The notes under the pieces: model-generated
Told to the model about the DNA's origin: nothing
The model's input: the letters and a program-made list of their open reading frames with translations, nothing else
Database searches by the model: none
Program-made: the position numbers and the translations under genes
Source: Tetrahymena elliotti 4EA
Taxonomy: Eukaryota; Ciliophora; Oligohymenophorea; Hymenostomatida; Tetrahymenidae
Direction: 5' to 3'
Length of the DNA stretch: 64,000 bases
Assembly (NCBI GenBank): GCA_000231825.2
Contig: JH720320.1
Span: forward strand, 22,482 to 86,481
Shown here: one piece after another, positions 38,542 to 62,077 of the stretch
How positions within the stretch are numbered: the stretch's first letter is position 1
Layout of the letters: each line of letters opens with the position of its first letter

Positions 38542-41500
38542 TCAATATTTACAATGTTCTTACTCAGTAAATGAAAAATCATTTATCTTTTCAGCATAAA
38601 TTTTATCTATTTACTGGTCTTCAAAACTGTTGAGTTTGTTTGCATTTTAATTATTTGTTAATTGCTCTTATTACTAATCATCATCTTCTTCTATGATTGG
38701 AATTCCAGAAAGAATAAATTATGAGTTGCTATTCAAGAAGCTGCCATTATCTATTTCAGTTTATTAAGGACTAAATACTTTAGATGGGTTCATAAACTGA
38801 TTGTATAGTTGTTTTTTCTAGCTTTAAAGTTAATAGTGATAGCTATCCATTGCAAAATCACCACTATCATATTTTTTTCCATTTTAATTATTGCCACTAC
38901 TTTCAGGATAATATGCTGTAACATTAAAACTAGAGCTTTATGTTTTAATAGATCTGTTTCTATCATTTTCTTTAAAAGAAGAGTTTAATTTAATATTAGA
39001 ATTTACTAAATTTGTTTCTTTTTTAGAGCTAGATAAACCTTTATAACTATTTTTTTTATCACTCTCATGTAAGGGCATTTTAAATCTATTTAATAAAATA
39101 AATCATGTTAAAACATTTTTTTACACAAAATGATTATTACGCAGTATTTTAAATTTTTTTGAGTTCACTATCAATAGCTATTTCAAAACTTTTTCTCTGG
39201 TTTAAGAATGACATAACCTCAAAGTAAAGATCGTTATTCACTGATTCTTACTCAAGAGATTTTCTCATATTATATTCCTTTGTCATTTTTCTCCATAAAC
39301 TTTTTATGTAAAATAATAATTATTAATGATGTTAATAAATTAAAAAATTAACAATTTACAAGAAAGATGAGAAAAGATGCTTTTGCCTTTGCTTTGTAAG
39401 TATCTTCAACAAAGCATTCTTTTTAATTTCTTTGTAATTAGATTTTTCTAAAACATTTGCACTGTATTCTTAGATAGAGAATAGCCCTTCATATTTCTAT
39501 TATAAAACTTTTTTCGAGGTAATTAGCTACAATTTCAGGCAGAAAATAGTAAGTGCTTTTGATTTATATTAAATATTTCCTACTTATTTGATTTAGTTAA
39601 ATGAACGAGATAAGTGATATTGCTTATACTATTATTCAAACTTAATTAATATTTTATGACATTTTTATAGTTTATCTGAGTAGGCAAGCAATTTAAGTTA
39701 CTAAAATGCATTTTTTTTAGTGTTTAAAGTTGCTTTCTCTACTAAGTAAACTACACGAGTATATAATTACTTTTACTTATTGTTAAGCTCATTCATAGAT
39801 TGTAAAACTTCATTCATTATTTATATCTCTCCTTGCTTTTAAGAAGCTTAAATTGCTCTCTTTTTAGCTTAACTTATTTCTAAATTTTAATATGTCTCAA
39901 CATAGATCTTACTCATTTAATTTTCTTTCAAGATATTCAGGAAGTGTAGGTAATTTGGAAAGAGAACACCATTTTTTATAATTTTAGCTACTTTTGATAC
40001 AAATTATTAGCCTTTTCTTTTATTAGAACTGAAAACTTTTATTTAATTGAAGGCATGGCTTAAATGTTCATATTATTACCTTAAACCTATATTAGAAACG
40101 ATTTCCTCTAATGATTTACTTTGCTAAAAGACCACATTAATCTAATCAAAAGCATTCTAAATTTATCTTTTTATTGCTACCTTAGACTTACGATTTAATA
40201 TGTTAGCCAAATATGAATATCTTTATCTAACCTTTTAAGCCATTTCTTCTTGAGATATCAAAATAGGTTACTATATTTTAATTGTACTTAATCTAAAAGG
40301 AGTAGCACAATTAAGCTTAATAGTGCGATCTGTTGAAGGAGAAACTATCTATTACTAAATTCCCTATTGTAACATGTTTTAACTTTTACTAAATGATGAT
40401 CTGTTTCCTCCTTAAATAGATTACTCAATTTAATCTTATTCATATTGCTATTAAATAATCTACCTCCTACTTAAAGGAGATACATATCTATTATCTTCTT
40501 CAATAATTGTTTATATTTGCTATGCTACAAACTAGTTTGATTGTTTTATTTCTTGATAAGTTTCTATATCAAATTGACGAATAATTTCAAAAGACTACTT
40601 TATCAAGTTGTAGTAGGGAACTCTTAGAATAGAGACAAATCTTTTAATGAGCTTAGCTTTTACTTCATTATATTACTTAATTTAATTAAATGAACTAGCA
40701 ATCTATCTCTTTTCAAGTAAAAACAACCTCTATCCCAATTTTCTAGAAGCCTTCTCTTTAATTTCTACATTTTTGCTAAATTTTAAAATATCATTTAGAG
40801 TGTTTCTTTTTTACTTCCTAAATATGCTCTGCAAAGTCTTAAAAACGACTAACATTTTACTATTATTTTGTTTATTAGCCATTTTTGCTCTTAATAATTT
40901 ATCAAAAAAGAAACTTTAGTTGTCACTTTAAATAAAATTAGCCATTTTTTAGAGATTTTAAACAGCCTTCTAAATACTCTTTTGTTCATTGTTATTTTAT
41001 TTTAGTTTTTAAATGCTGATTCTTAATTACATTTTATTTAATATTCTAAACATATTTTACAGTAAATTTTATTTTTTAATTTCATTTTTGATTTGAACAA
41101 ATCCATAACTCAAATTTTATTTTTTGCGATTATCAAATACTGATTTTAGCTTTACACTGAGCATCAAGTAAAAACTTTTAGAATACATTTTTCTTTGCTT
41201 ACTCTAGTAAGCATCAACTAGTCTATTACTTTTTAAGTTTATTATTGCAGAATTCATATTTTCTTTCATTTTTTTTTGCAAGAAATTACTTAAAACTGAA
41301 GCTGCGATTCTTCTTTTCATAAAATTATTTTAGCAAGTCCACTTGATTTAATTAAAGGCGTCGCTTTAAAGTTTTTATTAACGACTATTTAATATTCTAA
41401 CAAAAATATCACTTAACTTAGCTAATCTTCTATTTTAAAACTCATTTTTCTTTTATTTAGTTTAAAGTAATTTTCTAAAGGCATCTTACTTTCGATTTTC

Positions 41501-44500
41501 AAATAATTTTGAAAGGACACCCTAAATATGATAAGCTATAGCTTTGTTTTAGAGCGATTTTGTATACTCAATTTTTTTTGCATTTTAAAAGCTCACTTTC
41601 TTTATTGCCTCTCTACTTGCTTGCATTTATTATTCCTATTTTAATTAAAGAAAAGCACTCTTTAAGTAAATCTTTTATTTATTTTTGATTAGTGAGTTAA
41701 TTGTACGAATAGCAGCTCTATTTCTAACATTAAGTATGTGTAACTATTAAGACTAAATCTAAATTTAAGAAAAAGCCTGCTAAATTCTAGTTTTAATCAA
41801 GTTAGTAAAAACTTTCTTTAAAAGAAAATTCTTTTTCTTTTCACTATTGTCTAACTAAATATTAAGCTTGTAAAGAGTATTTAGGCATTCTCTCTTCTTT
41901 TTCTCAGCACATTTTCTAAATATATCTTGCAATTTCATTGCTAAAAAGTGATACTAACTAAATCTACCCTTAACAAAATTTCTTGAAACTGTGTATAAGG
42001 ATCTTAAATTTGAGAAAGCAGCCTTTTTGTTTTAGTATTCTTTGTTTTATATTAAAGTTTAAAAAGATTTCATTTAAGTTAGAATAGCTTTGTTGTCTAT
42101 AGCTGCTCTCTGAATCTAAAAGAAGGCTGATCTCTTTTTTTAATAAATCTAGCAATCAATATTATAGAACATTCTATCAATCTTTTCCTTTTTATTTTAT
42201 TTGTTATACCCATAACTACTGATTTTCATGAATGCTCCAACCAGATTACGAGTTTTGACAGTATTTACAACCCGGCTGCTCATATAGCAAACCATTTCAT
42301 ATTTGATATAAATATCTATATATTTTATCATATTTAATTCCTTTTTTTTCACCAAAGTCTCAATTAATTTCTCCATTCCTTTTGAAATTCTCCTGTTTCT
42401 TAACTCTTCTTAAGCTTCATTTCTTACTTAGTTTTTCTCTGCATAAATCAATGGTCTCTTTTCTTATTTTTTATCTTACTACTTAATTTGAAATGATTCT
42501 TACTCATCTTCTTGAGATTGTTAAACTTAAATTATTTAATTCTTTATTTCATTTAAGTTACTCATTTTTGGTGAATAAACTGACACCATTTGCTACTCAA
42601 CTAAACTATCCTATTCCTTTTTATGATAAATTGTATAAACATAAATATAAAATATAAAAACGCTATTTACCTTTTAATTTGGTCTCCATACTTCTTAATT
42701 CATGCTAAATTATTTATTTAAATCAATAGACTCAAATAGCTAATTTCTATAATTATTATTGGTGTTATTATTGTTGTAATTGTTGCTATTATTTTCTAAG
42801 TAGCTTAAAGTTTATTTGATCCCTGCTTCTTCAGCTTACTTTATAAAGTTTACTGGATTTAAGGTGGTTCGATTGAAATATACAGTATCATAATAATTAT
42901 CATTATTATTTTTATAGCTACTATTACAATTTTTGAAAGAAGGGCTATGTGATTATCTCCTTTACTCAAAACTTTTTTGTAGTTAACCAGATTAATTAAA
43001 AGGACTTAAATTACTATTTTTAGTTATAGATTTATTTGAATTTTTAAAGTTTGATTTTCTTTATGGAGAGCTAAAAATGTCTTCATAATATTTTATAGCA
43101 TCAAAATGCTGTTTCATTTTTTTGTTAAAAAGTTCATAAAGAATAGATAATTTTGAATAGTTTTTCTCATAACTGCTCTCTTGTCTAAATGTTTCTTACA
43201 TTACCTATTAAGAAGAACCTTGATTGAACTAAAATTTGAAATTATTTTTGTCAAAAATTTTATTAGATTTTTGCAAATTATCTTAATTAGACTATTACAA
43301 GATTCTAGTACTTGATAAACTAAGAGGAGTTGATGGTTAATCTGTATTTTCTGATTTGGAAGATAGCTCACTTGTTTATGACTTGCTTTGCTAAATTTAC
43401 TTTCTTTAAGGATCAAAAAGTATTGATACTTTTTTACTTAATAAGGCACTACCTCCTAAAAAGCTTTGATTCATACGAGCTAAAACTTATGTAGAAGGTC
43501 TCCAGTTTTATGTGTTAACTACCCCTAGTATTTATTTATTAGCAAAACTTTTTTATGGGGTTGTTTTTTCAACTATCCTTGAAATAATTATAGGAGATTT
43601 AGATTGAGTTTTTCTTGCCGAATACCCATTTTATTCAATATGAGGAATTCTAGTATGAGAAGAATACTAAGAAGCTAGCTTAATAAAAAATAAAGCCTTC
43701 AATTTAAATTATTTATCTTCAATTAACTATTATATGCTAGCTATTTTCATACATGCAAAAGCTTTGTTAAACTATTTGTTTGATATCCTTTACTAAGGTG
43801 TTTCATAAAGGTTTAAGTACTCTTGCAGGTCTTCTTTACAGCGATTTGCTTGTCTTCCTTTTTCTTCTTCATATTAAGTAACTGTTATTTATATTTTATC
43901 TACCTATTATTTCTTTTTTTAAAATTTTTGTAAGCCTTAATGAGTTTATGGATCATAAACTTTGATTTGCTTTATTGCAAAGGACATCATCTCAAGTGGA
44001 TGTATTCTAAAAACTCTATGCAATTTATTGAAAGCGATAGTATAAATTTAATACTTATTTTAATTTTTTTTTAGTTATCTAAAAGCTTATTTCAAAGTAG
44101 CCATCCTAACTAATTCATAATTTTTAGATACAACTAAGTCAAGTATACGATTTCGGCGCGTTTGTGAAATAGGAATAGATTTCTTTTTTGTAGATTATTA
44201 ATCATCAAAATCAGATAAACTTCTTAGTCCTCTTTTAGTTGTCTTCAGTTAATCTGGAGTTTTTTGTAGTCTATTTTTGTCAAATTAACCAGGCAAATTT
44301 TAAGATTTAAATAGGATGCTTTGAGATTGAAACATTGAATTATTCTAGCTGTTGTTATTTGATATCTAATTTATCTGACTTAAATTTATTGACTAAGGAA
44401 TGGTGAAATCTTGATTGAAATTCTGGGCACTGTGAATACTGCTTGATAATATTTCACTTGCATTAGAGTTTTGTATTAGGTTTACATTACTCTCATAGAC

Positions 44501-44668
44501 ATGACTATTTTCCTTGCTTACTCTTATTGGACTAATCTAGAAAGTTATTAAACATATTATACTTTTACTAAATTGACAAAAAAATTTTACAGAATAATTT
44601 GTTAAAACTGTTTAAGGCTTTCCCCTTTCATATGAAGTGATTTTCCTTTACCAAGGAGTTGAATTCAT
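38542..44668 (-). CDS. Large helical-repeat protein, unrecognised (about 1,900-2,000 aa)
   Basis: This is a long minus-strand gene starting at 44668 (MNSTPWQRKITSYERG...) and ending at a TGA at 38542-38544. One clear intron is 42617-42670. Others lie near 44.54-44.61, 39.5-39.8, 39.3-39.36 and 39.09-39.15 kb. The N-terminal third is Ser/Asn/Gln-rich and probably disordered. The rest is strongly helical and basic, with irregular repeats built on an (A/S)F-x-Q-(I/L)-K core: QAFRQLKKNQ, DAFRKLL, DAFNQIKW, SSFNQIKQY, HAFNQIKVF. These are spaced by tens of residues and separated by K/R/Q-rich coiled segments. An acidic patch (EEDDDQQQEQ) lies near the C-terminus. The pattern recalls long centrin- or calmodulin-binding helical scaffolds such as Sfi1, but I cannot assign it. 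A cytoskeletal or basal-body role is only an inference. The frame is open upstream to about 44.84 kb without another Met. Confidence 0.7.
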
Positions 44669-46451
44669 TTAATTTTACTATTCCTGCTTTAAATCGTGTT
44701 CTTCTTGGGTATACTATTTTCTATTTGCTAAAAAACTTGAAAATAAAAGCTATTTACTTTCTTTTTGATAACCTATCTATTGCTATTTACTTTCTAAACG
44801 TTTAATTTATTTGTTGTTAAATTTTGTCAGCAAAAGCTGATTTCACTTATTTGTTAAATAATTCTTTATCTAAATTTCTTTTAAAAATGTTAAGTATTGT
44901 CTGGTAACGTTAAAATTTTTTTCATTATACTTACTTTTAACATTTGGCTTGTAATTTTATAGCCAATTAGAAATTTTTCATTGAAAAAGCAAATTCTATT
45001 AATTTATTATCCTTAAATTTTATTTTCACCATTTATTTTATTTTATTTTTATTAGGATCCAAATTATAAAACCTTGGAAAAAACTAAATTGGCACAAAAT
45101 AAATAAAATTATTCCTTACAATTAATTCTAATTTAAAACCAAGTGATTTTAAATATTTTTTAATTACTCATTTTTATACTGCCTTTTTAATATTATTTAA
45201 AGTGGTACCACATTAATTTAATACTATACTTTTTAGTTTAAAAGTTTGATTTATATTTTCAAAGCAGTTCATTTATTATAGAATTAAATCCCACCCTCTT
45301 AGCTCATTAGTATTTCAAGCTAAAAATTAATTTAAAACGATTTTTTATCTTAAATAAAGAAATATAATTTTGATTAGAATATCTTGATATTATTAAATTG
45401 ATTTTACCAAATAGAAAAAAATGTAGATTTGCTAGAGCAAGTAGATCTGAATTAATTTAAATGGTGAATTACTCTTTCATATTGACAATTATCTTTGAGA
45501 AATAAAATTATTGTAAAATAATAAAAGTAAAGAATATTCAAAGAGGATTCTATTATCTATATTAAATTACATTTTAACAATGTAAGAATAGGTTTAATTG
45601 ATTTAGATTTTTAAGCTGGAGCTAAATCATTATAGCATTATATTATCCTAAAAAGGGAAATTTTTGGAAGATACCTTTTCTTTGTATATTTACAACCCAT
45701 GCAAATTCTTTGTTATACAGAAAGGAGCTTTTAGATTTGAGTTTTTCTTAGGCTCCTGTGATAGATAGATATTTTTGTTAACATTAATTATTGTATAGGC
45801 TTTTGACTGTATTTTAGTATGAATATGATTAATTTATTTATTTAAACAGAAAAGAAAACTACAATTTTGATAAATTGAAAAAAGTAGTCAAAAACAAAGC
45901 AAAAAATAAATAAGAAACACTTTGTCAGTCAGCAAATAATCAAAAAAGAATAAGAAAAACCAAATCATCCTAAGGCAGCAAAGATATTGATTGAATATTG
46001 TGTAAATTTTTGAAGCTTTAGATAGATCAGTGCAAAAAAGTTTAATTGATAGAGTAGGTTAAAAAGAAGAATAGCAGCGTGTGTGTGTTTTTTGAAGATA
46101 ATAAGGCAGAAGTTATACAAAGAGAAAAAGATAGAAGACATTAAAGTTATTATTTGCTTATTAAAAGTAGACTTGTAAAGATTGTATTAATAAAGGAATA
46201 AAAGCTTATATAGTCTAGCAAGAGTTCAAGAAGAATAATTTTTTAAATAAAAAATAAAGTCAAATCAAGAAGTGAAGTAAAAGAGATAGATAATTTACAA
46301 TTATTGAATCCTTCTTTTCAAAATATTATTTCTTCTTGATATTAGATTAGTTTGAAGGTGTATTAATTTAGTAGCTCTCTTTGTGAAATATAATCTTAAA
46401 AGCCACATTAAGTATTGAGCTCAATCTAAAAAACATAAATTTATATAATTA
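44669..46451. other. Divergent intergenic region with purine-rich leader
   Basis: This is about 1.8 kb between divergent genes. From about 45.84 kb to 46.45 kb the plus strand turns markedly purine-rich and less AT-extreme. It contains TGAs in the frames checked, which suggests a long 5' leader (or upstream non-coding exon) of the pseudokinase gene. The rest is ordinary AT-rich spacer. Confidence 0.45.
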
Positions 46452-49400
46452 ATGAGTAATAAATTTGAATATCACCTATAAAATCGATTAAATTTAGATC
46501 CTCTTAGAGCTACATGTCTACGATATGCAAAAACCTTTTCGAAAGTTGAACATTAATTTTAAAATAAGGTCTTCTTTCAATTCGATTCTGAGGGAGTTTT
46601 GTTGAAAGCTTTAGATAGGAATTCGCTTAATATTGCTTAAAAGCAATTCATGCAATTGAGTAAAGTAAATTAGATAGAGATATTGACATATAATATAGAT
46701 GAAGAAGAGTATAAATAAGTCATCTAAAGGGATATTAAAAATTCTAATAAATATAGTAAATGCTTCATGCAATTAATCACATATGAAGCCTTCAAAAGTA
46801 TTGCATAATAGTTAAAAAATTTTGGGTATGAGGAACCTATGAAGTTATATGAAAAATATATGAAATCTCATCCAAAATTCTCATTTTTATTATGTAATGA
46901 ATAATAATTTTAAAGTGTAAAGGCAGATCTGCTGAAGCTGTTCAAAGGCAGAAGCCATTCATCGTCTTCAACTGTCACATAAAATTAATTGTCTTCATCA
47001 AGCCATTTATCTACTTAAAGTTTAGGAGGAAGTTCTCAGCAGGCTGTAAACTACGGCAATAATAAAGATTCCTTCAATCAATCATAAATTTAATAAAGGA
47101 TTTTATAATGTGGGTTCAATGGTAGTATTGGAAACAATAACAACAGCTCAATATAAAAGTCAAAAAGTGATAATACTTATTTAGTTGGCAATAAAGGTAA
47201 ATGTTTTTAAATATAGAGAAATTAAAATATACTCTCTTTTCTTAGTTTTAACATTGTTAATTTAGTTTCAAAACTCATATAATATAATTAAAGTTAAATC
47301 TAAAATATAACTTGAATCATACCAAAATACTTTTTTGTAGTCTTTCTTTTCCCAATTCTTTTTAGCAACCCAAAAAAAATTGTAGGAAACATTTTAAGAA
47401 CATTATCAGCAAGCAACATAGTTATTTAATTAGTTGAAAATACACCTCGAATAAATTAAAAAGTTAGTAGAAATATCAAAAATCGACTGGTAATCAGATT
47501 GATTGATAGATTAAAATTTACAAAAACATTTATTTGTATTTGATTTAAAATTAACTTGGGATAGTACATTATTTTTCAAATAGATTAAATAATTTAAGAT
47601 AAATTTAGAGACAGCTTTCAATTGATAACTCGATTTTTTACTTAATTTCAAAATTTGGCAAGCTAATATATAATTCATTAATTAACAAAAGAATTTTTAT
47701 TTTTATTGAAATTTTAAATAAATTTTGAAATAAAAAGAAAATTATTATCAAAAAAACAAAAGCTATTTAATAATTCAAAACAAGATTCATGAAGATAATA
47801 TTTTTGTTTTTTTATCAAGTAGTAATAATATTATTTTAAATATTAGGTGCTTTGCTAAATTAGAATAAGAATATGAATGCGCATCAATAATAATAGATTA
47901 ATACCAGACAGACTGATTCTAAATAGCAAAAAATCAATAAGATTAATTTTAATAACTAGTAAAACCAGCAGGATTAATATACCAAAGTAGAGTATGTAAA
48001 AAAAGAAAAAAGTAATAAATCATAGTCAGAATTATGCTAAAATAATAATTATAAAATCAATAATAACAGCATTAATAATAATAACAATAAGAATAATAAT
48101 TTTGATAGTAATGATTCTATAAATAATGAAGTTTATACTTCTGATGAAGAACGCAGTAATAGTTGTAATAGGCAGAATAGCAAAAACAACTAAAGATATA
48201 GAAATATTTATCAAAGTAATGATAGAAATAATAGAGGATATCCAATATAATCATAGTCTCTTAATCATTAACACAATTATAATAATTAAAAATCTTATTT
48301 CATTAAGAGGGATCTTCAAAGCTATAGCAAAACAGGTACTGATACCACTACTACAGGAAGTCACCACGAATTAGATGGAAATGTAAAAAAGCAAGAATAA
48401 AATGACTATGACTATGATGATTAGGATGAATATTATGAGAATACCTATGATGATTAGAATGAATTTAACAAAATTAATGATTCAGCAGATCTAATAGATA
48501 CCTAAGCAGAAGAAAGTAATACTAATTATAATTTTTAGAATGAATTCTAAAAAGTTTACTAGAATGGGAGAGGAAATCATCATAAAAAAAATATTTAAAA
48601 CTCCTCAAATTCTTCAGGAGTTTCTTCAAGAACTCCATCACTTTCAAGATCTGCTTAAAACGAATCTCATATTTCAGTAGAATCAGAAGATTCAAACTAT
48701 TCTTATAAAGAATACATGTATCCTGAAGAGGAATAAGACATACAAAAGTATTAATAAATGAATGATTAGGAAAAGAGTTAAAATTTTTATAATCTTTTTT
48801 AGTTATAAAGTAAACTGTTATAAGAAGAAGATGAGAATAAAACTTAAAATTAGAGTAATTAGTATATTGATAGAATTAATAATGAGAGCACAGCCTCTTC
48901 TTCTTCATCTTCTTCCTCATCTTCCTCTCCTGCAACATCCTCTCTTTAATATCCATAATAGTAATAGTTATCACCTAACACAAATTAAATAGTAATATTG
49001 GTATCTAAAACTGTTCTTTAAGAAGTGGGTTAATCCACTGCTAAGTAGAATAAAAATGTTAGCAAAATTTCAAAATAATAAATAATTGATTCAAGTAGTT
49101 GTAACGATTTAGATGGAAGTATTGGTAAAATGCAAGAAGTTTAGGAACTTATAAATAAAGGAAATTAAGTTATCTTACTGGACCCATTAGTATATATGTG
49201 GCTTTTTGTTTCAGGAAGAATAAAATTAGAGAAAGAGATTAAATTTAAAATCTTTGAAGAAAATAAAAAGATCATTGCAATTGAAGGAATAGATTAAGAT
49301 TTAATTAAGATAGCTTCATGTTTATCATATGAAAATTTATAGAGAATAGCAACAAACAACATAGATTAACTCAAGTAAAACGAAAGGTTTATAGATTTAA

Positions 49401-50818
49401 AAAATAAATTTGAAATAAGTAGCAACTAGGAAGGAAATGATCAAGCATAAAATCTTTCTAAGCAAACAAATTAAGAAGAGGAGCAAGATGAATCTAAGAA
49501 AATTCTTAACAAATTAAAGAGCAAGAGCAAAGGATTGATAATGACAAATAAAATATTAGAATTGGTTACATTTGAATAATTCAAAGAGTATTTTAAGAAA
49601 TTCAAAGTTAAACCTATTATCAAAATGTGTGCTGAATAGTTTAAACTAATCAATCCAAAAGATAAGTAAAAGGGATGTGTATTATTTTTGACTCCATTCT
49701 CTTAATAGTAGTAGAAGCTTACAAATGAAGACATCATCAAAGAAATAAGCTGCAAAATAGAATCAATATTTTGTTCCATAGTTAAGTTATAGATGTCTAA
49801 ACAAATAGTTGATCAAACTAAACCATACTACCAATACAGATAATTTGACATAAAAGATGTTAGAAAAGTATCTTCATTGAATGATGCTGAAACGGCCTTC
49901 ATTGCTGAATACAAATATCAAACTTACTGTCTAAAGTAATATCTTAAGTTGAATGATAAAAAGTTAAATAAAATAATAGCAAATTATCATGAATAAGCAG
50001 TTGCTGATAACCCTTAATTCACTCAAATTTATGCAATATCTGTTGTTACAAAAGGTTAAGATCAAAAGGAAAAAGAGCTTTATGTACTCTCTGAATTGAT
50101 GTATATGAACCTAAAGAACGCACTTGATGATAAAGTTCTTAAAGCAGAGATTCAATAGGTAGAAGCTTGCATTTAGTTAGTAAATGCTCTATTTAATTTG
50201 CATTCTAAGAACATAGATGATTTCAAATTATTTCATGGTAATCTGAAACCAACTAATGTCCTATTTGACGAAAATCTCTCTCTCTATTTGTCTGATGTTA
50301 ACTTAGACCCTATTGGTTGTCCTAACACTTAAAACTATAAATCAAGCTAATCTTCTTCAACTTCTCTAACATTCCCCATTTAAAATATCTCTCAGAATTT
50401 AAATGAAAAGATGATGGGAATGCCTTAAAGTTCTTCAAGTAATTTAATAAGTAGTCTGAATAACAGCTTTAACAATTCTAATAATTCCTCAAGCCAAATT
50501 AGTGTAAACTAAAACTTTTATTGTGCGCCGGAATTATTCAAAAGTGATCAAAAGCTAAATAAGCCATCTACCTATTCTGATATTTGGAGTTTAGGTCTTT
50601 TGCTTTATGAGATTCTGTAAGGAGCATCATTAAAAATTGACAATAAGAAAAAAATTAAAAAATTACAATATGAACACTTCTCAAAGAACTTAATAGGAAT
50701 GAAGAATATTATCTAAAAATGTCTTTCCAAAGAGCCTCAACAACGTCCTTCTTGTGAAGAAATCCTCTCAGAACTGATAGATATCCAAAAAGCACTCAAT
50801 AACTAAAAAGAAAAGTGA
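46452..50818 (+). CDS. Pseudokinase with novel N-terminal domain and Asn/Ser-rich centre (1,238 aa)
   Basis: Two exons, 46452-47196 and 47847-50818, give 1,239 codons with the TGA at 50816-50818. The intron joins NK-G-ALLN in phase 1. Residues about 1-165 form a compact domain (LRATCLRYAKTF, KVFFQFDSEGVLLKALDRNS, IEILTYNIDEEEYKQVI, NFGYEEPMKLYEKY, FSFLLCNEQQF). The same domain recurs at the start of the gene at 58.6 kb. I do not recognise it. A long Asn/Ser/Asp/Gln-rich region follows. The C-terminal part is a protein-kinase fold: hinge YVLSELMYMNLK, catalytic loop HGNLKPTNVLFD (about residue 1045), SDVNLDP in place of DFG, a Ser/Asn-rich activation segment, CAPELF and SDIWSLGLLLYEIL. The HRD Asp and DFG Gly are lost and no glycine loop is visible. 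A scaffold or allosteric pseudokinase is therefore likelier than an active enzyme. Confidence 0.85.
47197..47846 (+). other. 650-nt intron of the first pseudokinase gene
   Basis: The donor GTAAATG follows NTYLVGNK and the acceptor AATATTAG precedes GTGCTTTG. Joining them keeps frame (GGT Gly). The length is unusual for this window, and a small internal exon cannot be excluded. Confidence 0.75.
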
Positions 50819-51538
50819 GATTAATTTAGAATAAATTTTTTTAAAATATTATATTCATAAATAAATAAATAAAATCAATACCCTTGATTTTTAAAATTAT
50901 TCTCTCTCATTTGCTAAAATTATTAATCCTCAGATAAAAATTAAAATTACTATCTAACATAAAATTACAAATAAATCTATATAATTCATGAGTAAGGAAA
51001 AGAAACTTTAAGAATTCAAGTAATCCCATTTATTATGCTCTCATAATCCCAAAAATTATAGAATTCTTTTACCAAAATAAAATTATTCTAAATTGGCATA
51101 TACTTGGTTTACTGCTTATTCTTTTGTTCAACCCTACTCTTTTTATGATCCAAATATAATATTTGTTCATTTGTTTATTTGTTTGCATTCATTTGCTACA
51201 AGTAAGAATTTAAAAAACATCAAAAAAGCAGAAATAACAAAATATTCTGCTTAATAAATACCATAACTACTCTTTTTTATTTCAAATCTACATTTTTAAC
51301 CAATAAAAGAAATTAAATACCCAAAATTTTGTCTAATTTCTATTGATAAATTAAAGAAAAATAAATAATTAAATTGAAATTACAGTTCATAATAATCATA
51401 TTTTTTTCACTCCAAGTTTTAGTTTACAAACATTATTGCAAAATATTTAAAAATGAAGTATTATTATTGCAAAACAAATATTTAGTAAATAATTATAAAA
51501 TAAATTATAATATTTAACAAAATATTTAAATATATTAT
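50819..51538. other. AT-rich convergent intergenic spacer
   Basis: This is the region between the stop codons of the pseudokinase and the enoyl-CoA hydratase. I see nothing in it beyond A/T runs. Confidence 0.5.
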
Positions 51539-52394
51539 TCATAATTTTGGTAGAGGTTTGCCACCTCTCCCTGCTTTGTTTTTCACAAAATTTTAAGCTC
51601 CTTGTGAAGTTTCTCCTTTTAAGATAGCTAAAGAACCTCTATGAAATTCTGTTTCAATTTATTTCTCAAAATTAATGAATGTATTTTCATAAAGATTTTA
51701 TCTATCTAACTGCATACAATATTAAGGATTTTTTATTATTTCTTGACAAAGTTCTATTGACTTATCCAAAACATTTTCATCATTTTTACAAAGCCTGTTG
51801 ACTAGACCCCATTCATATGCTTCTTATCCTTTGACTTCTCTACCTGTAAGGACCATATCTTTTGCTCTATTGAAACCAATTACCTTTGAAAAATAAATTT
51901 TATATTTTAAAAGCAAATAAATTTACTCTTTATAGCCTGATGGTCCCTCCATCTATCAAGGGTACTCCAAATCTTCTACAAAATACTCCAAAAACACATT
52001 CTTTATTTGAAACTATCATATCACACCATAAACTTAATTCAAGTCCTCCTGCAACAGCAAATCCCTCTACAGCTCCAACTACTGGCTTCTTAGTTAGATA
52101 TCTAGATACTCCCATAGGAGCCTTACTCTAAAAATGTAAAGGAAACATCTATTATATCTTGTTTGGATGCATCATTTCAGAGGCTTCCATTAAATCAAAT
52201 CCTGCACAAAATATTCCATTTTTAGAGGCAAATATGGCAATAAGAGCTTCAGAATCCTCATCAAATTCTTTGAAAGCCTTAAGTAATTCTGAGGCAGTTT
52301 CTGAGTTAACACAATTTCTTTTACTAGGTCTATTAATATTAATAATAACAATTCTGTTATTATCAATTTTTTTTACTTCAATATTCTGATACAT
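51539..52394 (-). CDS. Enoyl-CoA hydratase/isomerase family (crotonase) protein (270 aa)
   Basis: This is a crotonase-fold enzyme, which normally hydrates or isomerises acyl-CoA intermediates in fatty-acid or amino-acid breakdown. It starts at 52394 (MYQNIEVKKIDNNRIVIINI). One 43-nt intron (51884-51926) leaves 271 codons with the TGA at 51539-51541. Signature elements are ININRPSKRN, then IFASKNGIFCAGFDL (acyl-CoA oxyanion strand). KPVVGAVEGFAVAGGLELSL gives the second oxyanion Gly and the helix carrying the catalytic-position Glu. CRRFGVPLIDGGTIRL-QRVIGFNRAKD, VLTGREVKGQEAYEWGLVN and ETSQGAQNF follow. The length is normal for the family. The protein ends LPKL, which resembles a weak peroxisomal PTS1 tail, but this is only suggestive. 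The plus-strand frames at 51886 and 52159 are shadows. The exact acyl-CoA substrate cannot be told. Confidence 0.93.
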
Positions 52395-53097
52395 TTCAAT
52401 AATTTTTGGTGTATTTTTAATTAAATTTTTTAATTCTTTTGAATATCAAAAAAAAGACAGTTGTCAAAATATGTGCCAGATGAAGTCTTACATGATGTAT
52501 TAAAAATTTATTATATCTAATGTCTGATACATTTTAAAATTAAAAAACAAGTTTTTGCAATTCTAAATTTTATATTTAGAATTTAGACAATTGATTTCAT
52601 TCTTAAAACTTAAGTTTTCAAAATTCTAAAATATTAAATATTTTGTGATAGAAATTACTTTTTATTTTTTAAGCATTTAATTTCATTAAAGATTAGAGTA
52701 TTGACAAATGTTTTATTTTCTTTTAGGATTGTTTTACTGGGTTATTTTAATTAAAATAAAAAATTAATTTATAAATCTCTATTAATTTAAAATTATTAGG
52801 TTTCTTGATGGAAATCAATGATTAGAAAAATAACTTCATATTTTTTTACTCAATTGATTTTTATTTTTATTCAATAAAAGAATTAAAAAATTATCTTGTT
52901 ATTAACCAATTTTAGAATTTTAACTGTTTTCTAAATATTTATTAACAAAAGATATAAATAAAATTACATCTCTCATTATTTTTTACTTAGAGACATAAAT
53001 ATCTATCTTTACATAACTTTATTAATGTATTTTGTAAATTTTTGTTTTACTATCTAAAATAGAATAAGTGATTTAGAAAGAATAAAATTTTAGTAAA
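52395..53097. other. AT-rich intergenic spacer
   Basis: This lies upstream of the hydratase and downstream of the LRR-like gene. I see no gene, RNA or repeat. Confidence 0.5.
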
Positions 53098-56000
53098 TCA
53101 AATTTCTTAGAATTAAACAGGTATTTTTTAATACATTTTCTAAAAACTGAAAAAATTATCAAAATAGAAATAATAGAACACCATCATATTTTTAAATAAA
53201 TTAATTATGAATTTTTATCGCTCAAATATCAAATACTCAGTATAATATTAAACCAATCTTTTAGCTTTCACCATACTTTTTTAAATAATTTCAGCAATAT
53301 CTTCTAACTCTAAATATTATTCTGTAAGGTTACCTCTTAATGATAGAAAAATATATGATTGAACTTAAAAAATAAATGGATTTAAAAGTAAGTAATTAAA
53401 TAAGTAGATATTTAAAATATTATATCAAAGATGGAGAAATTTATTTATTATAAAAAATTTTATTTTATAAACTATATGAGAAAAATATCTTTACATATCT
53501 CTAAGTTCTGTTTTTAAAATTAAGAGACTATTAGACTTTGCTAAAAAAGAAAAGAACCTAAAGATACTACTTAAGCTTATTTTCCTTTTTAATTTAAAAA
53601 TACTTTTATTCAAATCTAAAATATTTTTAATAATTAAAAATAAAATATCTGATTTAAAATTAAGTCAAGATTAATAAATAATATTTAAATAATATTTAAC
53701 TAAAAATTAATAAGCAACATCCAAAAAATTATTTTTACATCAGATTTAGTGATAAATTTTAAAGTTAAGTATACTGAATCAAAGATTTTCCCAATGTTAT
53801 TGTTCTACTCTCAAATTTTTCATAAAATCTTTTTATTCAAAAAATTATTTAAAAACAAAAGAGATGCCTTGAAAAAAATATTTACTTTAATAAATACTTT
53901 AAATAAAAAGAATTAATAATATTATAAATTTAAAATTATATTTACTGATAATCTATCTAGGCTTAAAGTTATAAGATTGGTGAAGTTACTTAAATTATTG
54001 CATAAGATTTAATTATAAATACCAAGAGGTTTTTAATAATTATCATAATCTATAATGAAGCTTATTAAAATAAAAAATAGAATTGGTCATAAATAACAAA
54101 GAAGCATTTTAATACTTCTAATTTTATTTTTGAAACTTTAAAAAATATATTGATGTTAGTTTGATAATTAATAGAAATAAACTATTATTACTTTTTTTAA
54201 TTGATAAATTTGTAAGTTTTGGAAATTTTATTAAGCCATCAAATAAATAGGCTATTGCTAATTAGCCAGCTTCAAGTTCTTCTATTTCTGTAATAAAATT
54301 ATTAAATTTTATGAAAAACTGAAAAGAAATAATATTTAATTAATATTATCTAGTAGTCAATTCTTACTTCACTCTCTCTCAAAATGAATTTTTATTTAAA
54401 ATAGAGAGTTTAAGGTATATTAAACAATAATATTCTTAGGATAAATATAAGCTAAAAAAAATTGATTGTGTTTTTATTTGTATTTGAAGTTTAATAAATA
54501 ATTTTTTTTGAAAATACTTTAGAAAGAAAGAATAAAAAATGGACTTACAAAATTGTAAAAGTTGATAGATTATTATATTTCGATAAATCAAAAGCTAAGT
54601 TAGAGTAGCCCCATAAAGAGATCTAATTATTTCTTTATTAAAATTAGGAAAATGTATTCTTAGAATGATAACCAATTGTAATTTTTGGAAAATATGTTTA
54701 CAAAACTGGAATACAAATTTTTCTCTTTTTTAATTTAAATAAATTTAGATTTAAATTTTAGAGTTTAGAACACTTTGCTAAACCAGAGCCTAAATCTGAT
54801 AAATCCCATGCCCTAATTTTACTTTTTCTTTTTTTATTAAAAAAACCATAATTTTATAAAACTGAAAATTGAGAAAAAAAGTAAAAGGAATTCAAAAATA
54901 TCAATTGGCAGACTGAGAAAAATAAAATAAATTTAACTTACGAAAAGTCAAGAGTTAACTTTAAAAGATTAGCACATTTTGATATGCCATCCCCTAAATC
55001 ATAAAAACCTTAATCTGTTATTAAATCTTACCTAAAATATTTTATTTAAATATTAATAATGAAAAATTTGAAACAATTTAAATTTTTTAAAATTTATCAT
55101 ACAAAACAAGTGCAGAAAAAATTAAATAAATTCCCATTCTTTTCTAATAAACAAAGTTAAAGTGGTGAGATTAGCAATATTTGATAGTATAGAACCTAAA
55201 AATGATAAGTCTTCATCAAAGATTTAGTTTTTTCTTTTTTATAAATTAAATTATAGATATGTTTACATTAAAAGTAAAGTGAATGATCAAAAAATCGAGT
55301 TTAATTTTTATTCTAGGATAGTTTTTATTCAAGCGATTCAATAAAAATTTATTAAATTTAGCAAAATTTTGGCAATTAAATTTAAAAATTCTATTTCCTA
55401 AAAAAAAAACTCTAATATTTTAATCTTAACATTAGTTTTAGAAATATCATGAAAAGATTTGCCTCTTTACTGTTTTATGATTGTAATAAGTGCCATTAAA
55501 TTTACACTCAAAAAATTAATTCTTACTGCAGGTTAAGTATCAAAATTTAAAATTTAGAGCAATTAACTAAACTAGAACCTAATTTTTAAAAACCTTCTGA
55601 CCTGAAATTATTTTATCTAATAAAATATTTAATGTAAATAAGAGTTTTGTAAAATTTAAATGATAAATATATTTTTAATATATCCATATTAAATAATGAT
55701 AAAAGGTGATATTTAATTTAGAATAATAATAGAAACTTTACTTTTTTATCTTATATAAATAAATAAAAGAAATTTTTTACTTTAAATTCAATTCCAAAGA
55801 ATTCAGATTGTTCAATTATTTTATACATTAGCATATGCTTGTCAAGCCTATATCACTAATTTCATTTTATCTTTTTATTTTAGTAAAAATAATTATTATA
55901 CTGTAATGTCTATCATTTCGGACTCATAAAGCTATTTCTAAAAAATCTAACTCTTATTTTATTTTGAGTTATTGATTACTATTAAAAAAATTCCTTAATT

Positions 56001-57677
56001 CATATTTAGAATGAGTTTAAATAAAAGTTTAATTTCTCGAATAGAAAAAAAAGAAAAGAAATCTTATAAAAATATTTTGAAGTGAAAATATTATATACTT
56101 GAGATTTAGCTTTAAGGATTATAGATTTAAATACTTTTCAAGGTATTTACTTAAGATTTAAGCACCATCATCATTAATAACAAATATATTAGTTTGATAA
56201 CAAGAATAGGAATACCTAAAAAAAAATTGTAGTGTAGAATAAAAGTGAAGGTATTAATATTTATATTTTTACTTAAAATCAAGTGTCAAATTTTAAAGAT
56301 TAGTACACTTTATTAGATTTTAACCTAATTCTGATAGATTATTTTCTACTTTTATTTAGTTTTCATAGATAAATAATTTATTTGAAAAGAGCTAGATAAC
56401 AAAATCAAGATTTATTTAAAATTAAAAAAAGATGAGTTTTTATTTTTAAATTATCAAATTAAGATGTTCAAAATAAATAATCTTTACATAAATTCAATTT
56501 TTATTGTAGAGGTATTAAGCAAATTGTCTTGATAAATCCCTAAATTGAAAAACATCTAATCTTATATTTTATTTAACCTTTTTAAATATTTTTAATTAAA
56601 GAAAATTAAGAATGAAAAATAGGTTCAATTAATGTTTACTCAAGTGAAAAACTATTTAGATCAGAACATTTTTAAATGCATTTTTCTATTTTGATGTAGC
56701 TTTTATATCTTTAAGAAGTTTTAAAAAATGAATTTTAAAAATTAATCAAAATTAAAGGAGCTTCAAGAAGAAAATAATTAAATCATTTTACAAAATTTTA
56801 ATTTCTAACATCTCAAGGTTAGGACAATTTACTAAATATGTGCTCAATTCTTTAACTTCATTAAGATTATCTTTGCTAAAGCTTTCAATAAATCTGAAAA
56901 AGATTGTTTATTAATTGTTAAAAAGTAGTTTAATTAAAAATTTAAAATTAAATTTATTTTAAAAAAATAATATTTTTACTTTATTGTCAAATAAATAAAA
57001 GCTTGATAGACGGACAGACTTTTCAAAGCCTACGTGTATTAATGATGAAATCTTTAAATTTATATTAGCAAAACTGTTTATATTATTTTTAATAGTTAGA
57101 GATTAATTTAAAAGCTTATCTGAATAAATATGAAGAGAGAATATTTAAAATGAGTATTAATAATCAGTTTAATATTAAATTTTAAATTAATTTAAAATTA
57201 AAGTTGTAAGACAACTTGGTTTACTTCAAATTAAATTTCAAGGTTAATAAATTAGGAAATTTTTTTAAGTTTTATCCTATTTCTTTATGTCTTTGATAAT
57301 CTCTTCATAAAGTTATTATTTACTTTTTATTTAAAATTTATATGTTTTTAAAAAATAGAATTAAAAAATTTTAAAATAAAAAATAATCAATAATCAAATC
57401 AACAAAAATTTACAAAATTCTTTCCTTTTAGAATCATGTTTTAAAATTAAATATTAATTCAATAAAAAAATTTTGTTTGAGTAATAATTTTAAACTAATT
57501 AACTTTGAATAAAGTTTAAATTTAGTTACTTTTTTAGATGAACTGCAAAGATGTGTAGTGAAGACTTGCAATCTAAAAACTTTTATTTTCATAAAACGCA
57601 TGTTTAATCGTTTTTGTTACAAAATTGCTATTTACTTCTTAAATAGTGTCAAAAGAAATTGATTACTATCGTTTCAT
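53098..57677 (-). CDS. Leucine-rich-repeat-like protein with many small exons
   Basis: Short minus-strand coding segments separated by AT-rich introns carry variants of one repeat, LG-x-x-L-x-x-C-x-x-L-x-x-L-x-L. Examples are FYDLGDGISKCANLLKLTLD (near 54.97 kb), LSDLGSGLAKCSKLQNLNLN (54.77), LSFLGSILSNIANLTTLTL (55.19), FQKLGSSLVNCSKFQILIL (55.57), LSELGQNLIKCTNLQNLTLD (56.31) and VKELSTYLVNCPNLEMLEI (56.84). This is the ciliate style of LRR, usually a protein-interaction solenoid. The last exon appears to encode EDIAEIIQKSMVKAKRL and to end at a TGA at 53098-53100. A possible first exon starts at 57677 (MKRQQSISFDTIQEVN). No TM segment or catalytic domain is visible. Exon boundaries were not all resolved, so the ends and the count as a single gene are provisional, and decay of some units is possible. 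Confidence 0.55.
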
Positions 57678-58578
57678 TTTTTGGTATTTTTGTTATTTCT
57701 AAATTTTTGGGTTTGAAATTTTATGTTGTTAATAATTAATTATCAAATTTATTGAAATTGAGTTAGTATTTCAGATTTTTTTTTCTTCTTAGAATAAAAT
57801 AGGCTATCGAATAGCAGAGTGGTTTTTTAAAGTAGTTTAGAGTTAATAATTAGTTTTGAAAAATATTTCAATTTTATTAATTAGACAGAAAAACAGATTC
57901 AGATTTGCTTTAGTTAATATTCAGGACTAAAGATTTATGGAAAATCAACTCAATTAATTATTTAAAATTATAATAAAGTTTATATGTTTAAATAGTAAAA
58001 AACACATTGATTAGAAGAAAAAATCTAAAAGAATATTTATTAGTCTATTAATAATAATTAACTAATTGTCTTGGTATATTGAATTTTTGAGCACAAAATT
58101 TTCATAGTAATTTTTAGTTAATTAAATCAATATTTGTTTAGCTTGCAAGCAAATAATCAAAGAGAATAATAGCATTCAACTAAATTACAGCATATTAGTT
58201 AATTAGTAAGTGGTTACTTATAATAGAAATTGTAAAGGATTTACACAAATAATTGAATATAGGTAGCAAAAGATAAAACATAGAGTAAAAAAAAGAGTTT
58301 TAAGAATTGACCGAGTTGCATAGTGGAGATTACATAAAGTTCAAACATAGTAAAATATCCATACATTTGTATCAAATCAGATTATCATCGAAAAAGTGTA
58401 ATACAGATACTGAAAAGAAGGCGGAAAATATATTTATTAATCTCTAAAAGGAGAAAAGTAAAGAAAAGCAAGAAAAAATAGAATTTTCATTTAGAAAGAA
58501 AAGTAAAAAAATCAGAAAAGGCAAATATAGGATAAAGAAAACCATCTTTAAGGTGATTATAATATAAATAACTACTGT
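57678..58578. other. Divergent intergenic region with purine-rich leader
   Basis: This separates the LRR-like gene and the second pseudokinase gene. From about 58.14 kb to 58.58 kb the plus strand is purine-rich, like the segment before the paralogous gene at 46.45 kb, and has stops in the frames checked. It is probably the 5' leader. No other feature is seen. Confidence 0.45.
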
Positions 58579-61500
58579 ATGATTACAGAAAATATTGATA
58601 AAAAATATCCACAAAAAAAGCAGTACTCAGACCTTTCAGCAGTTCGTGCAGCATGCTTATTTGTGGTAAAAGCTTTAAATAAGCTTGTAGAAGAGATGAA
58701 TAATTAGGTCTACTTTGACTTTGATTAAAATGGTTTGATTTTAAGAGCCACAGATAAAGATTCCTTGTAAAGAGCTAGTAATAAATTAGAGCACTGGAAA
58801 GAATAAACATCAATAGGTATATTGACTGATAGCATTTCTAAAGAAGATTATAAAAAATTCATAGACTCAGATTTGTAATCTTTACTCCGTTAAGAAAGAG
58901 CATTTATAAATGTAATATCGTTTGATAAATTCTTAGCAGCCTGTGAGTTTTTAGAGAAAAAAGGCTATAAAGAGCCTCGTTAAATGTATGAAGAAATATA
59001 GGCAGAAAATAAGAATTTTGCACTCTTAATGTGTACAAAGCATAGGTTTAAAGAAATAAAAGAAAGAATAGAAGCAATGCTTGAACCACTTAGAAAAATA
59101 AAAAAGAAAAAGAAGATTACATCTTCAATAAAGTTAGCATCTACCTGGGATGATGTTGATGACAGTAACTTCATCAGTTTTATTTTCTGAAATAATCATC
59201 TCTCATTTTCAAATTGTGATTTTCTTAAATAAAACTTTATTTTTTAAATTTCTACTTTGCAAAGCTTAGCCCATTCTAGCAAATAAGTTATTAGAAAATA
59301 TTTTATTAATAAATGCAATTAAGCTCTAATAATTTAGAAATGGAAAGATGAAAATTTTTTGCAAAATTAAACTATTTTTAAGGAGATTTTATTTTTTATT
59401 TTGAAAATAGTTTCAATAGGTACTCAATCATAAAAGCAGGAAAAAGAAAATGTAGTTTAGCCATTAGATACAATAGGATTTCTTTAAGTAAAGAAGAACT
59501 AATAAGATAGTGAGGAGTAAATATCACAATTCAAATTTAATTAAAATATTTTAAGCATAGGCAAATATAAAGTTAATATTAAGAAACATTTCAAATTTTT
59601 TGTTGAAAATTTTGAAAATGAAAGTAGCTAATTTCTAGATTGTTTTAATAAATCAACCAATCAAGCAATAATAAGCTAAAATGTTCTTTTTTTAAATGAA
59701 TTTTAGTGAAGTAAACCTTTTATTTTTATTTAAAAATTATTCAATACTTAAGATTTATGAGTAAAAGGCAATAATAAATAGAATAAAAGCAGCATTTTTT
59801 TTATTTTCCAATAAAGTTTTAAATGACATAATTTCTAATAGAAAATAAAAGTTTTTTGATTTAAAAAGATACATAACTTATTGAATCATATTTGAAAGAT
59901 TTTGATTGAATTATTTTATTTATTAAATTAGAAAATAAAAATAATTAAATTTTTGATTTATTGTTTTATGCTTAAAATTTTATAATAATTTAGTTATTTT
60001 AAATATTTTATGGAAATCAATTAGATTAGCTAAGGAAGAATATAAAAAAGAGTAATAATAAAAAGCAAAAGAATCTGCTATTTATGAAGTTGTTTTATTG
60101 GAAATAGAATAATGGTTAAATTATTTTACTGAAATATTGTAGATTATAGAGGAGAGTGAGAAGATAAAAAAATAAGATGATGAAAATAATTTTAATATTT
60201 AGTTAATAAACTAGTAATTTTAAGTAGACTACCCTCATCAAAATAATTATAATAGTAATCCAAGCTTGTAAATAGAAGTAGGATTTTTGCAGTTAAAAAT
60301 TTTAAAAGAAACTCTCTCTAATGAATAATTAAAGTTAATTGAAAAGATTAAATTAAAATGTGGACCATACTTAGATCATATATTATAAAATAAACCAAGA
60401 GAATTTATAAATTATTTATTTAATGAAATGGAACCAGAAGAAAAAGAGTATTTTTAAGTCTTCACTTTGAGGGAATTATTAGATATATCTTATAAGCAAA
60501 TAGATAATTATCAACGTAAACCTTAAACTGCTTAAATGAGTACTAGAAAAAGAAACATAATATCTAATCTAAAAGAATATATAGACAAATTTAGATAAGA
60601 CTAGCTCATAACTATTGAAAATGATGGGAACATATATAATCAGTACTTCCTTAATGGAGTTTAAAATATTCATAAATTATTTGCTGAAACTGTAGATAGA
60701 ACAGAAATGATGTATGTAAAAGCATGTGCAACAAATTATAGTAGCTTAAACCATAATAACAGATTAAGTGAATCAGATAGTGAGCATATAGATCACTACG
60801 AAGGCAGGAAATACAGTTATAATGGAAATGATTTAATTTAGAATAGTGAACCGAATTATGAAGAATTAAATTAAGTAAATCAACATTAATATAATAATTA
60901 TGGAAATAACTAAAACCACTCAACTCAATTAAATAACTAAAATTACAATTAAAATCATCACCACCATTATAAAAATTCAAATAATTAAAGTAGCTCATTT
61001 TAATAAGAGATAGAAATGTAAGTTTTAAAGGCAGCACAGCTATTTTTGTAGACTAATACAAATTAAACAAATAATAGTAATGATGATAGTAATTAATAGC
61101 AAATAGATGAAATTATATTGACATAAGTTGAACCTTCGTAACTAATTCCTCATAAAAATAAACTAAACTACGTTGAATATTTAAATACTCCATATTATTT
61201 AAAGAAATTTCAAGAGCAATCATTAGAAGATGTTATTGAGATTACTAAAAAGAATAAAGCATTCTAAAGTAATAACTGTATTAAATACCATAAAATAATA
61301 TAAATAAATACTCAGCAACAATAGAATCAACAAGACACAGATTAATCCTTATAAAATATCAAAAAAGAGTATGGTATTCTTATGGAGAGAAAGGAGTTTA
61401 CATTAAAATATTTAATTGAAGAAGGTTTTTTGTTTTCAATTTATTAGTAACTAGATATCTCTTTGAAAATAATAAAATGCTTACATGAAATACACAATTA

Positions 61501-62077
61501 AAAAGAAAAAAGAGGAGCACACTGCAATCTAAAACCTAATAACATTATGCTAGACATGCTTTACAATGTGTATCTTAGCGATATGGGACTTGATCCTAAA
61601 AAGAATCGCACTTACTATTATTAATTTGAGAATAACTATTAAAACTCACTGATAATCCTAAAAAATAAACTAAAATTATAGTTTTTAAAATCAACAGATT
61701 AAATTATTTAAACAGCCACAGAGAGCTTTAAAAACTAAAATTCAGCTTAAAATAATTCTAATTTTAGCTTATAAAATTATACGCCTGATGGGTAATTTAA
61801 ATAGGCCTTTTAATAAAATTAGACCCTTTTTCTTAATCAACTTGCTGATCTATAATCTTTAGGTCTGATATTGTATGAAATTTTTACAGGATAATAGATT
61901 TCTGCAGAAAGTTACTTTCTTAAAAACCATAGATAATATATAAAAAGAATATCATAAGAAAGTCCAACTTCCACTTTACAAAAGATTTTCTCAGTAATAT
62001 TTAATTTGCTTGAACTTTAAATAACTTCAATTGAAGAATTATTGCCTCAATTTTAAGAGATACTTAACAAATTCTGA
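58579..62077 (+). CDS. Pseudokinase paralogue with the same novel N-terminal domain (974 aa)
   Basis: Exons 58579-59164, 59420-59705 and 60025-62077 give exactly 975 codons with the TGA at 62075-62077. The introns (255 and 319 nt) keep frame across DDVDD-STQSQKQ and NEF-QLAKEEYKK. Residues about 12-165 match the N-terminal domain of the gene at 46.5 kb: VRAACLFVVKALNKL, QVYFDFDQNGLILRATDKDS, IGILTDSISKEDYKKFI, EKKGYKEPRQMYEEI, FALLMCTKHRFKEI. The middle is Asn/His/Gln-rich. The C-terminal kinase-like fold shows ILMERKEFTLKYLIEEG (hinge), HCNLKPNNIMLD (about residue 789) and SDMGLDP. TPDGQF replaces the APE motif, and DLQSLGLILYEIF replaces D-x-W-S-x-G. The HRD Asp is lost, so catalysis is unlikely. 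Without the second intron, the first exon could be read as a separate 203-residue protein ending at 59190. Exact phase agreement favours one gene. Confidence 0.8.

What the first reader, a model, noticed from the sequence alone, without database searches (positions are those of the whole stretch)
46452..62077. Two paralogous pseudokinases sharing an unrecognised N-terminal domain
Both genes (46452-50818 and 58579-62077) pair a conserved domain of about 150 residues with a C-terminal kinase fold whose catalytic Asp is replaced (HGN and HCN for HRD). The DFG region reads SDVNLDP / SDMGLDP. The N-terminal domain keeps blocks such as F-x-F-D-x-x-G-x-x-L-x-A-x-D, ILT-x-x-I-x-x-x-x-Y and GY-x-EP-x-x-x-YE. 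I know of no named family matching it. The domain architecture looks new and may define a ciliate signalling or scaffold family.
Basis: partly seen in the sequence, partly recalled or inferred. Interest (0 to 1): 0.85.

Follow-up and report, generated by a model that had tools for sequence, protein, structure and literature searches.

The report
Tetrahymena dead kinases with new domain
Two genes in this window belong to a small family in the ciliate Tetrahymena that joins an apparently switched-off protein kinase to a conserved front domain matching no known protein family, so they probably work as connectors in the cell and not as enzymes.

Summary
Both genes pair a ~155-residue N-terminal domain with a kinase fold whose catalytic Asp is Asn (HGN, HCN). 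A third gene of the same build (HGN) lies on contig C11; all three N-domain loci found carry such a kinase. Annotated orthologues in T. thermophila, T. malaccensis and T. utriculariae have both domains in one protein for two of the three genes. For gene 1 (46452-50818) the fusion is probable but unconfirmed: no annotated orthologue was found. The N-domain has no credible match in Pfam, NCBIfam or the PDB; AlphaFold gave only low-confidence models (pLDDT 48-49), so its fold is open. Word-based protein searches found only Tetrahymena relatives, so a wider ciliate family is not shown. All three kinases keep the beta3 Lys, catalytic-loop Asn and DFG Asp, as HER3 does. In the gene 2 family the N-domain is ~99% identical between species against ~77-80% for the pseudokinase; in the C11 family both are about equally conserved. 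Best reading: a three-member, so far Tetrahymena-only family of non-catalytic adaptors with a conserved N-terminal binding module. New variant of a known kind; partner and pathway unknown.

The parts
46452..47196 (+). Gene 1 exon 1; N-domain at about 46490-46946 (LNLDPLRATCL...VKADLLKLF)
   Evidence: Open frame under code 6, GC 0.279; paralogy to gene 2 N-domain E 8.3e-23
47197..47846 (+). Gene 1 putative intron (650 nt, donor GTAAAT, GC 0.186), possibly holding an internal exon or other coding-like segment at 47364-47510
   Evidence: In-frame splice to 47847; four direct acceptors would be in frame, so phase alone is weak evidence
47847..50818 (+). Gene 1 second exon: long Q/N/S-rich linker, then pseudokinase
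   Evidence: About 989 codons of the 1029-aa stop-to-stop frame; PF00069 E 4.1e-19 for its last 306 residues
49832..50815 (+). Gene 1 pseudokinase region: CLKQY (beta3 Lys kept), HGN at 50234-50242, SDVNLDP at 50291-50311
58579..59164 (+). Gene 2 exon 1; N-domain at about 58624-59094
   Evidence: 155-156 of 157 residues identical to three Tetrahymena orthologues
59411..59516 (+). Gene 2 exon 2, short linker exon bridging N-domain and kinase exons
   Evidence: Reads ISIGTQSQKQEKENVVQPLDTIGFLQVKK, close to the same stretch of the three annotated orthologues
60025..62077 (+). Gene 2 exon 3: linker and pseudokinase, stop at 62075-62077
   Evidence: Spliced model 914 aa
61109..62074 (+). Gene 2 pseudokinase region: YLKKF (beta3 Lys kept), HCN at 61520-61528, SDMGLDP at 61577-61597, no APE by eye
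   Evidence: PF07714 24.5 bits (cut-off 23.1); PF00069 26.7 bits (cut-off 31.7); alignment with gene 1 and C11-family kinases

Best explanation
These are two of three members of a family of non-catalytic adaptor proteins, seen so far only in Tetrahymena. Each has a conserved ~155-residue N-terminal domain of unknown fold, a long low-complexity linker and a C-terminal pseudokinase. Shown: the three-member family, the domain pairing (annotated as one protein in two of the three orthologue families), loss of the HRD Asp, and strong constraint on the N-domain. Inferred: the N-domain is a binding module for a conserved partner; the kinase fold cannot transfer phosphate efficiently but may hold a nucleotide in a HER3-like way (beta3 Lys, catalytic-loop Asn and DFG Asp kept); it acts as a docking or allosteric surface, so that the protein tethers the N-domain's partner to a signalling complex.
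For: The same three N-domain loci with each of three queries in the own genome, each followed by an HxN kinase. Annotated fused orthologues in three species for two families; the window-species models of 914 and 1025 aa splice in frame. The kinase parts are related too: gene 1's piece finds only C11 besides itself at E<=1e-5 (18 candidates), gene 2's finds only gene 1 at E<=0.001 (6 candidates); pairwise z 13.5, 9.4 and 6.0 against 300 shuffles each (low-complexity inserts in two of them may inflate z). Asp-to-Asn is present in 3 of 3 annotated gene 2 orthologues and 3 of 3 C11 orthologues. In the gene 2 family the N-domain is identical at 155-156 of 157 positions against 110-115 of 143 and 126-131 of 163 for two kinase segments. 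The HER3 residue pattern and its ATP binding are from passages of PMC4718504.
Against: No expression, binding or localisation data. The Gly-rich loop is unrecognisable, so nucleotide binding may be absent. The gene 1 fusion lacks an annotated orthologue. The best match of the C11 kinase outside itself is a C27 HGN kinase without a detected N-domain (E 2.8e-7), ahead of gene 1 (1.6e-6), and gene 2 is not in that list at all, so the kinase parts are not shown to form an exclusive clade. In the C11 family the kinase is about as constrained as the N-domain: 249/270 against 154/159 (window species and T. thermophila), 257/270 against 156/159, and 257/270 against 151/159, so the N-domain is not always the most constrained part.
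Confidence: 0.6

Rival explanations
1. The N-domain is a very divergent member of a known fold (KH-like or ferredoxin-like alpha-beta-beta-alpha core) and binds RNA or a peptide; the proteins are then RNA- or peptide-binding pseudokinases, not carriers of a new domain.
Confidence: 0.3
2. In gene 1 the N-domain and the pseudokinase are two separate genes, so only gene 2 and C11 carry the fused architecture.
For: A 650-nt AT-rich gap separates them, with a protein-like segment in another frame at 47364-47510. Gene 1's N-domain found no protein of 681-2167 aa and none beyond the gene 2 and C11 families at about 324-1031 aa, which fits a short separate model or a missing one.
Against: Same order and strand as two fused paralogues; a GTAAAT donor at the end of exon 1 and an in-frame join.
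Confidence: 0.25
3. The kinase domains keep weak or unusual catalytic activity and are atypical kinases, not dead ones.
For: Beta3 Lys, catalytic-loop Asn and DFG Asp are kept in all three. HER3, with the same Asp-to-Asn change, shows trans-autophosphorylation in vitro on vesicles (PMC4718504 passages).
Against: Catalytic Asp and, by eye, the Gly-rich loop are lost in all three and APE in two; the gene 2 kinase drifts between species.
Confidence: 0.1

Closest known systems
HER3/ERBB3-type pseudokinases (HRD Asp to Asn, beta3 Lys, Asn171 and DFG Asp kept)
   Same: Same loss and same three retained residues; HER3 signals by allosteric activation of partners (PMC4718504 passages)
   Different: HER3 is a receptor tyrosine kinase that heterodimerises with EGFR and HER2; these proteins have a different N-terminal domain. 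No kinship beyond the kinase superfamily was tested
MLKL (helical N-terminal domain plus pseudokinase)
   Same: General layout (recalled): small N-terminal domain, linker, C-terminal pseudokinase
   Different: MLKL_N matched only gene 2's exon-1 piece, at 17.3 bits, below the 27-bit cut-off, over residues 150-187; the low-confidence models include a two-stranded hairpin
Other HxN kinases of the same Tetrahymena genome (C27 HGN, C45 HLN and five more)
   Same: Catalytic Asp replaced by Asn in H-x-N-L-K-P-x-N; the C27 kinase is close to the C11 kinase
   Different: No N-domain detected by profile within about 8 kb upstream in 7 of 7

Membership tests
Eukaryotic protein kinase fold (Pfam PF00069 / PF07714) | Profile match above the curated cut-off | tested here: met
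   gene 1 PF00069 69.4 bits and C11 53.2 bits (cut-off 31.7); gene 2 only PF07714 24.5 bits (cut-off 23.1), with PF00069 26.7 bits below its cut-off. As whole proteins, the gene 2 orthologues P0001-P0003 show no kinase hit
Pseudokinases | Lack of at least one of beta3 Lys, HRD Asp, DFG Asp | tested here: met
   HRD Asp is Asn in gene 1 (HGN), gene 2 (HCN) and C11 (HGN), and in the six annotated orthologues found
Pseudokinases | Absence of phosphotransfer activity | not testable with these tools
   Needs purified protein
HER3-like one-cation nucleotide binders | Beta3 Lys, catalytic-loop Asn and DFG Asp present | tested here: met
   CLKQY / YLKKF / CLKKF; KPTN / KPNN / KPEN; SDV / SDM / QDF
HER3-like one-cation nucleotide binders | Measured ATP binding | not testable with these tools
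   None
MLKL | N-terminal four-helix bundle (MLKL_N) | tested here: inconclusive
   One sub-threshold match, 17.3 bits against a cut-off of 27; models of low confidence
KH-domain proteins | beta-alpha-alpha-beta-beta-alpha fold with GXXG loop | tested here: inconclusive

The most novel reading that the evidence does not exclude
The N-domain is a genuinely new protein domain, possibly a new fold, that arose or became unrecognisable in the Tetrahymena lineage and is the working part of a three-member family of dead kinases. It binds a highly conserved partner, and the pseudokinase serves as its tether or nucleotide-sensing switch. Gene 1 may even carry a second, decayed copy of the domain just before its kinase.
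Probability: 0.4. Interest if true: 0.55.

Novelty: new variant of a known kind. Interest (0 to 1): 0.42.

Why it matters
[quoted passage not shown] A family of only three genes in the genetically tractable T. thermophila (tractability recalled), with an almost frozen N-terminal domain in one branch, is a clean target for knockout, tagging and pull-down, and the N-domain is a candidate new domain family.

Tried and rejected
Known family for the N-domain: Pfam, NCBIfam, PDB by sequence and by a profile of 8 sequences gave only sub-threshold, mutually inconsistent matches (EF-hand_13, MLKL_N, a solute-binding protein, a designed protein, TRAPPC3), treated as chance. PHROGs and PADLOC were not searched.

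Kinase subfamily: the C11 kinase against PDB sequences matched generic kinases (290 at E<=0.01, best 2.6e-7, MAPK1-like and NEK2), which does not place it. The gene 1 kinase was not searched there (one search failed).

Second copy of the N-domain in gene 1 before the kinase (ILLDPLVYMWLFV...): against gene 1's N-domain z 1.63, 78 of 1000 shuffles as good; z 3.58 with 3 of 1000 only after I removed a Q/E-rich stretch by hand; against the other two N-domains z 0.28-1.48; an N-domain profile did not rank it above shuffles; hhalign probability 0.4%; no other relative in the genome at E<=1. A like test of the gene 2 stretch also gave nothing. Not established.

Conserved intron phases as proof of common fusion: gene 2 phases 1 and 2, C11 phases 2 and 0, gene 1 first intron phase 1. 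Not conserved, so not used.

Rfam on the window: no match.

Literature: 'Tetrahymena'+'pseudokinase' 32 papers, 20 listings seen; 'TTHERM_00034990' 0 papers; 'Tetrahymena'+'kinome'+'protein kinase' 65 papers, 20 listings seen; 'pseudokinase'+'ciliate'+'Paramecium' 8 listings; four pseudokinase-motif terms 24 papers, 8 listings seen; 'Tetrahymena'+'catalytically inactive kinase' 2 listings. No listed title or abstract start describes this domain pair. Passages only were read in PMC3341644 and PMC4718504. Supplements and subscription papers were not searched. The T. thermophila genome paper was not held.

In the C11 family one comparison has it equal to the kinase.
Full report
Setting. The window is from a Tetrahymena genome (G000, 89,954,799 bases in 134 contigs; window = C28:22482-86481), GC 18-26% in 2-kb steps, read with TAA/TAG=Q. 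Its gene 2 N-domain is 98.7-99.4% identical to those of T. malaccensis, T. thermophila and T. utriculariae, but other parts of the protein differ by 10-39%, so I take it for another Tetrahymena species or strain; I did not name it.

Observation. Both genes are as described. Gene 2 resolves into three exons (58579-59164, 59411-59516, 60025-62077), giving 914 aa, the length of T. thermophila TTHERM_00034990 (P0002, 914 aa). The short middle exon reads in frame with both neighbours and resembles the orthologues' linker, which argues that N-domain and kinase are one gene. Gene 1 is modelled as 46452-47196 plus 47847-50818 (1238 aa). The 650-nt intron is AT-rich (GC 0.186 against 0.267-0.279 in the exons), but it contains a coding-like stretch in frame 0 (47364-47510) that my model does not explain, and four acceptors would give an in-frame join.

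A third paralogue. Each of the three N-domains, searched against the own genome, found the same three loci and no more (E<=0.001; E<=1). The third, on C11, is modelled with three exons (969424-968838, 968779-968206, 968068-966152, minus strand), 1025 aa, and ends in a kinase with HGN and QDFY. Its orthologues are annotated as one protein in T. malaccensis (1021 aa), T. thermophila (1014 aa, 'kinase domain protein') and T. utriculariae (1012 aa). So 3 of 3 N-domain loci found in this genome are followed by an HxN kinase, and 6 of 6 annotated orthologues found carry both domains.

How special is the kinase? Ten sites in the genome encode H-x-N-L-K-P-x-N-[I/M/V]; the pattern read backwards gives none. 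Three are this family. In the other seven, an N-domain profile run on stop-to-stop frames of 40 aa or more found nothing within about 8 kb upstream; the best hit outside the three genes had E 0.11. The kinase parts are related: gene 1's kinase piece finds only C11 besides itself at E<=1e-5 (18 candidates scored), and gene 2's finds only gene 1 at E<=0.001 (6 candidates). Against this, the C11 piece finds a C27 HGN kinase (E 2.8e-7) before gene 1 (1.6e-6), then five weaker kinases, and not gene 2 (26 candidates). Of these, the C27 and C45:702k kinases also have Asn for the catalytic Asp. A wider group of HxN kinases may therefore exist, within which the N-domain was found in three genes only. 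The kinase family itself is huge here (1450 first-look candidates for PF00069, 121 of them scored).

Residues. All three keep the beta3 Lys, the catalytic-loop Asn and the DFG Asp, lack the catalytic Asp and show no Gly-rich loop. Gene 1 keeps APE; gene 2 and C11 do not. Genes 1 and 2 carry a long low-complexity insert after the DFG region, whereas C11 has a very short segment there. These are readings by eye (where the C11 family is represented by T. thermophila). The retained set equals that described for HER3, which binds ATP with one cation despite Asp-to-Asn (PMC4718504, passages).

Constraint. In the gene 2 family the N-domain is identical at 155-156 of 157 positions between the window species and three others, against 110-115 of 143 and 126-131 of 163 in two kinase segments and 67-71 of 110 in linker segment 471-580. 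In the C11 family the two domains are about equal: window species against T. thermophila, N-domain 154/159, kinase 249/270, linker 383/531; T. thermophila against T. malaccensis 156/159 and 257/270, against T. utriculariae 151/159 and 257/270. So the N-domain is nearly frozen in both, but only in the gene 2 family does it stand far above the kinase.

What is the N-domain? No match above cut-off in Pfam or NCBIfam, none credible in the PDB. Both AlphaFold models agree on helix, two-stranded hairpin, helix, then helices, but at pLDDT 48-49; the conserved hydrophobic blocks in the second half (such as FINVI, FALLMC) look like further strands to me, which is my reading and not the model's. Structure comparison gave no standout. 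The fold is open.

Distribution. The three database searches returned only Tetrahymena or nothing: 3 proteins among 725 candidates, none among 233 and 6 among 7994, the candidates capped to those sharing most words. They depend on shared five-residue words and length windows, so distant ciliate relatives may be missed. Gene 1's orthologues were not found in either length range searched with its words (681-2167 and about 324-1031 aa), which may mean a split, missing or oversized annotation.

Mechanism. Most likely these are non-catalytic adaptors: N-domain as partner-binding module, flexible linker, pseudokinase as docking or nucleotide-sensing surface. That the catalytic Asp is lost and the N-domain is constrained rests on the sequence; the rest is inference. 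HER3, with the same residue pattern, works by allosteric activation of partner kinases according to the passages read.

Verdict. A real three-gene family in Tetrahymena, with an N-terminal domain that the libraries searched here do not recognise and that I found described in no listed paper. Modest to medium interest: lineage-specific kinases and probable pseudokinases are expected in ciliates (PMC3341644 passages), but the almost frozen unknown domain is worth a structure and a pull-down.

Noticed in passing
window 47364-47510 (+, frame 0): Protein-like stretch (SNPKKIVGNILRTLSASNIVIQLVENTPRIN...) inside the putative gene 1 intron; coding-usage score 9.1, best of the three + frames. Internal exon, minus-strand gene or chance.
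   Followed up: partly
window, gene 1 residues about 700-910, before the kinase: Stretch starting ILLDPLVYMWLFV that resembles the N-domain by eye (LDPL start, later LVTFEQFK) but not significantly.
   Followed up: partly
L035, L036, L037, L038, L039, L040, L041: Seven further kinases with Asn for the catalytic Asp in the same genome (HGN, HLN, HGN, HFN, HSN, HRN, HRN), one looking MAPK-like (L039) and one with a PX-like N-terminal part (L040; both by eye).
   Followed up: partly
window 39065-44842 (-): 1925-aa open frame of repeated short helical units rich in F-x-x-I/L-K; looks Sfi1-like by eye, no Pfam match at E<=0.01.
   Followed up: partly
window 51816-52445 (-): Enoyl-CoA hydratase/isomerase exon between the two genes (PF00378 E 1.3e-23).
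   Followed up: no
window about 53000-57700 (-): Many short minus-strand frames with leucine-rich-repeat-like units by eye (LQSLKLNLK, LNSLELNLK), perhaps an intron-rich or decayed LRR gene between the two paralogues.
   Followed up: no
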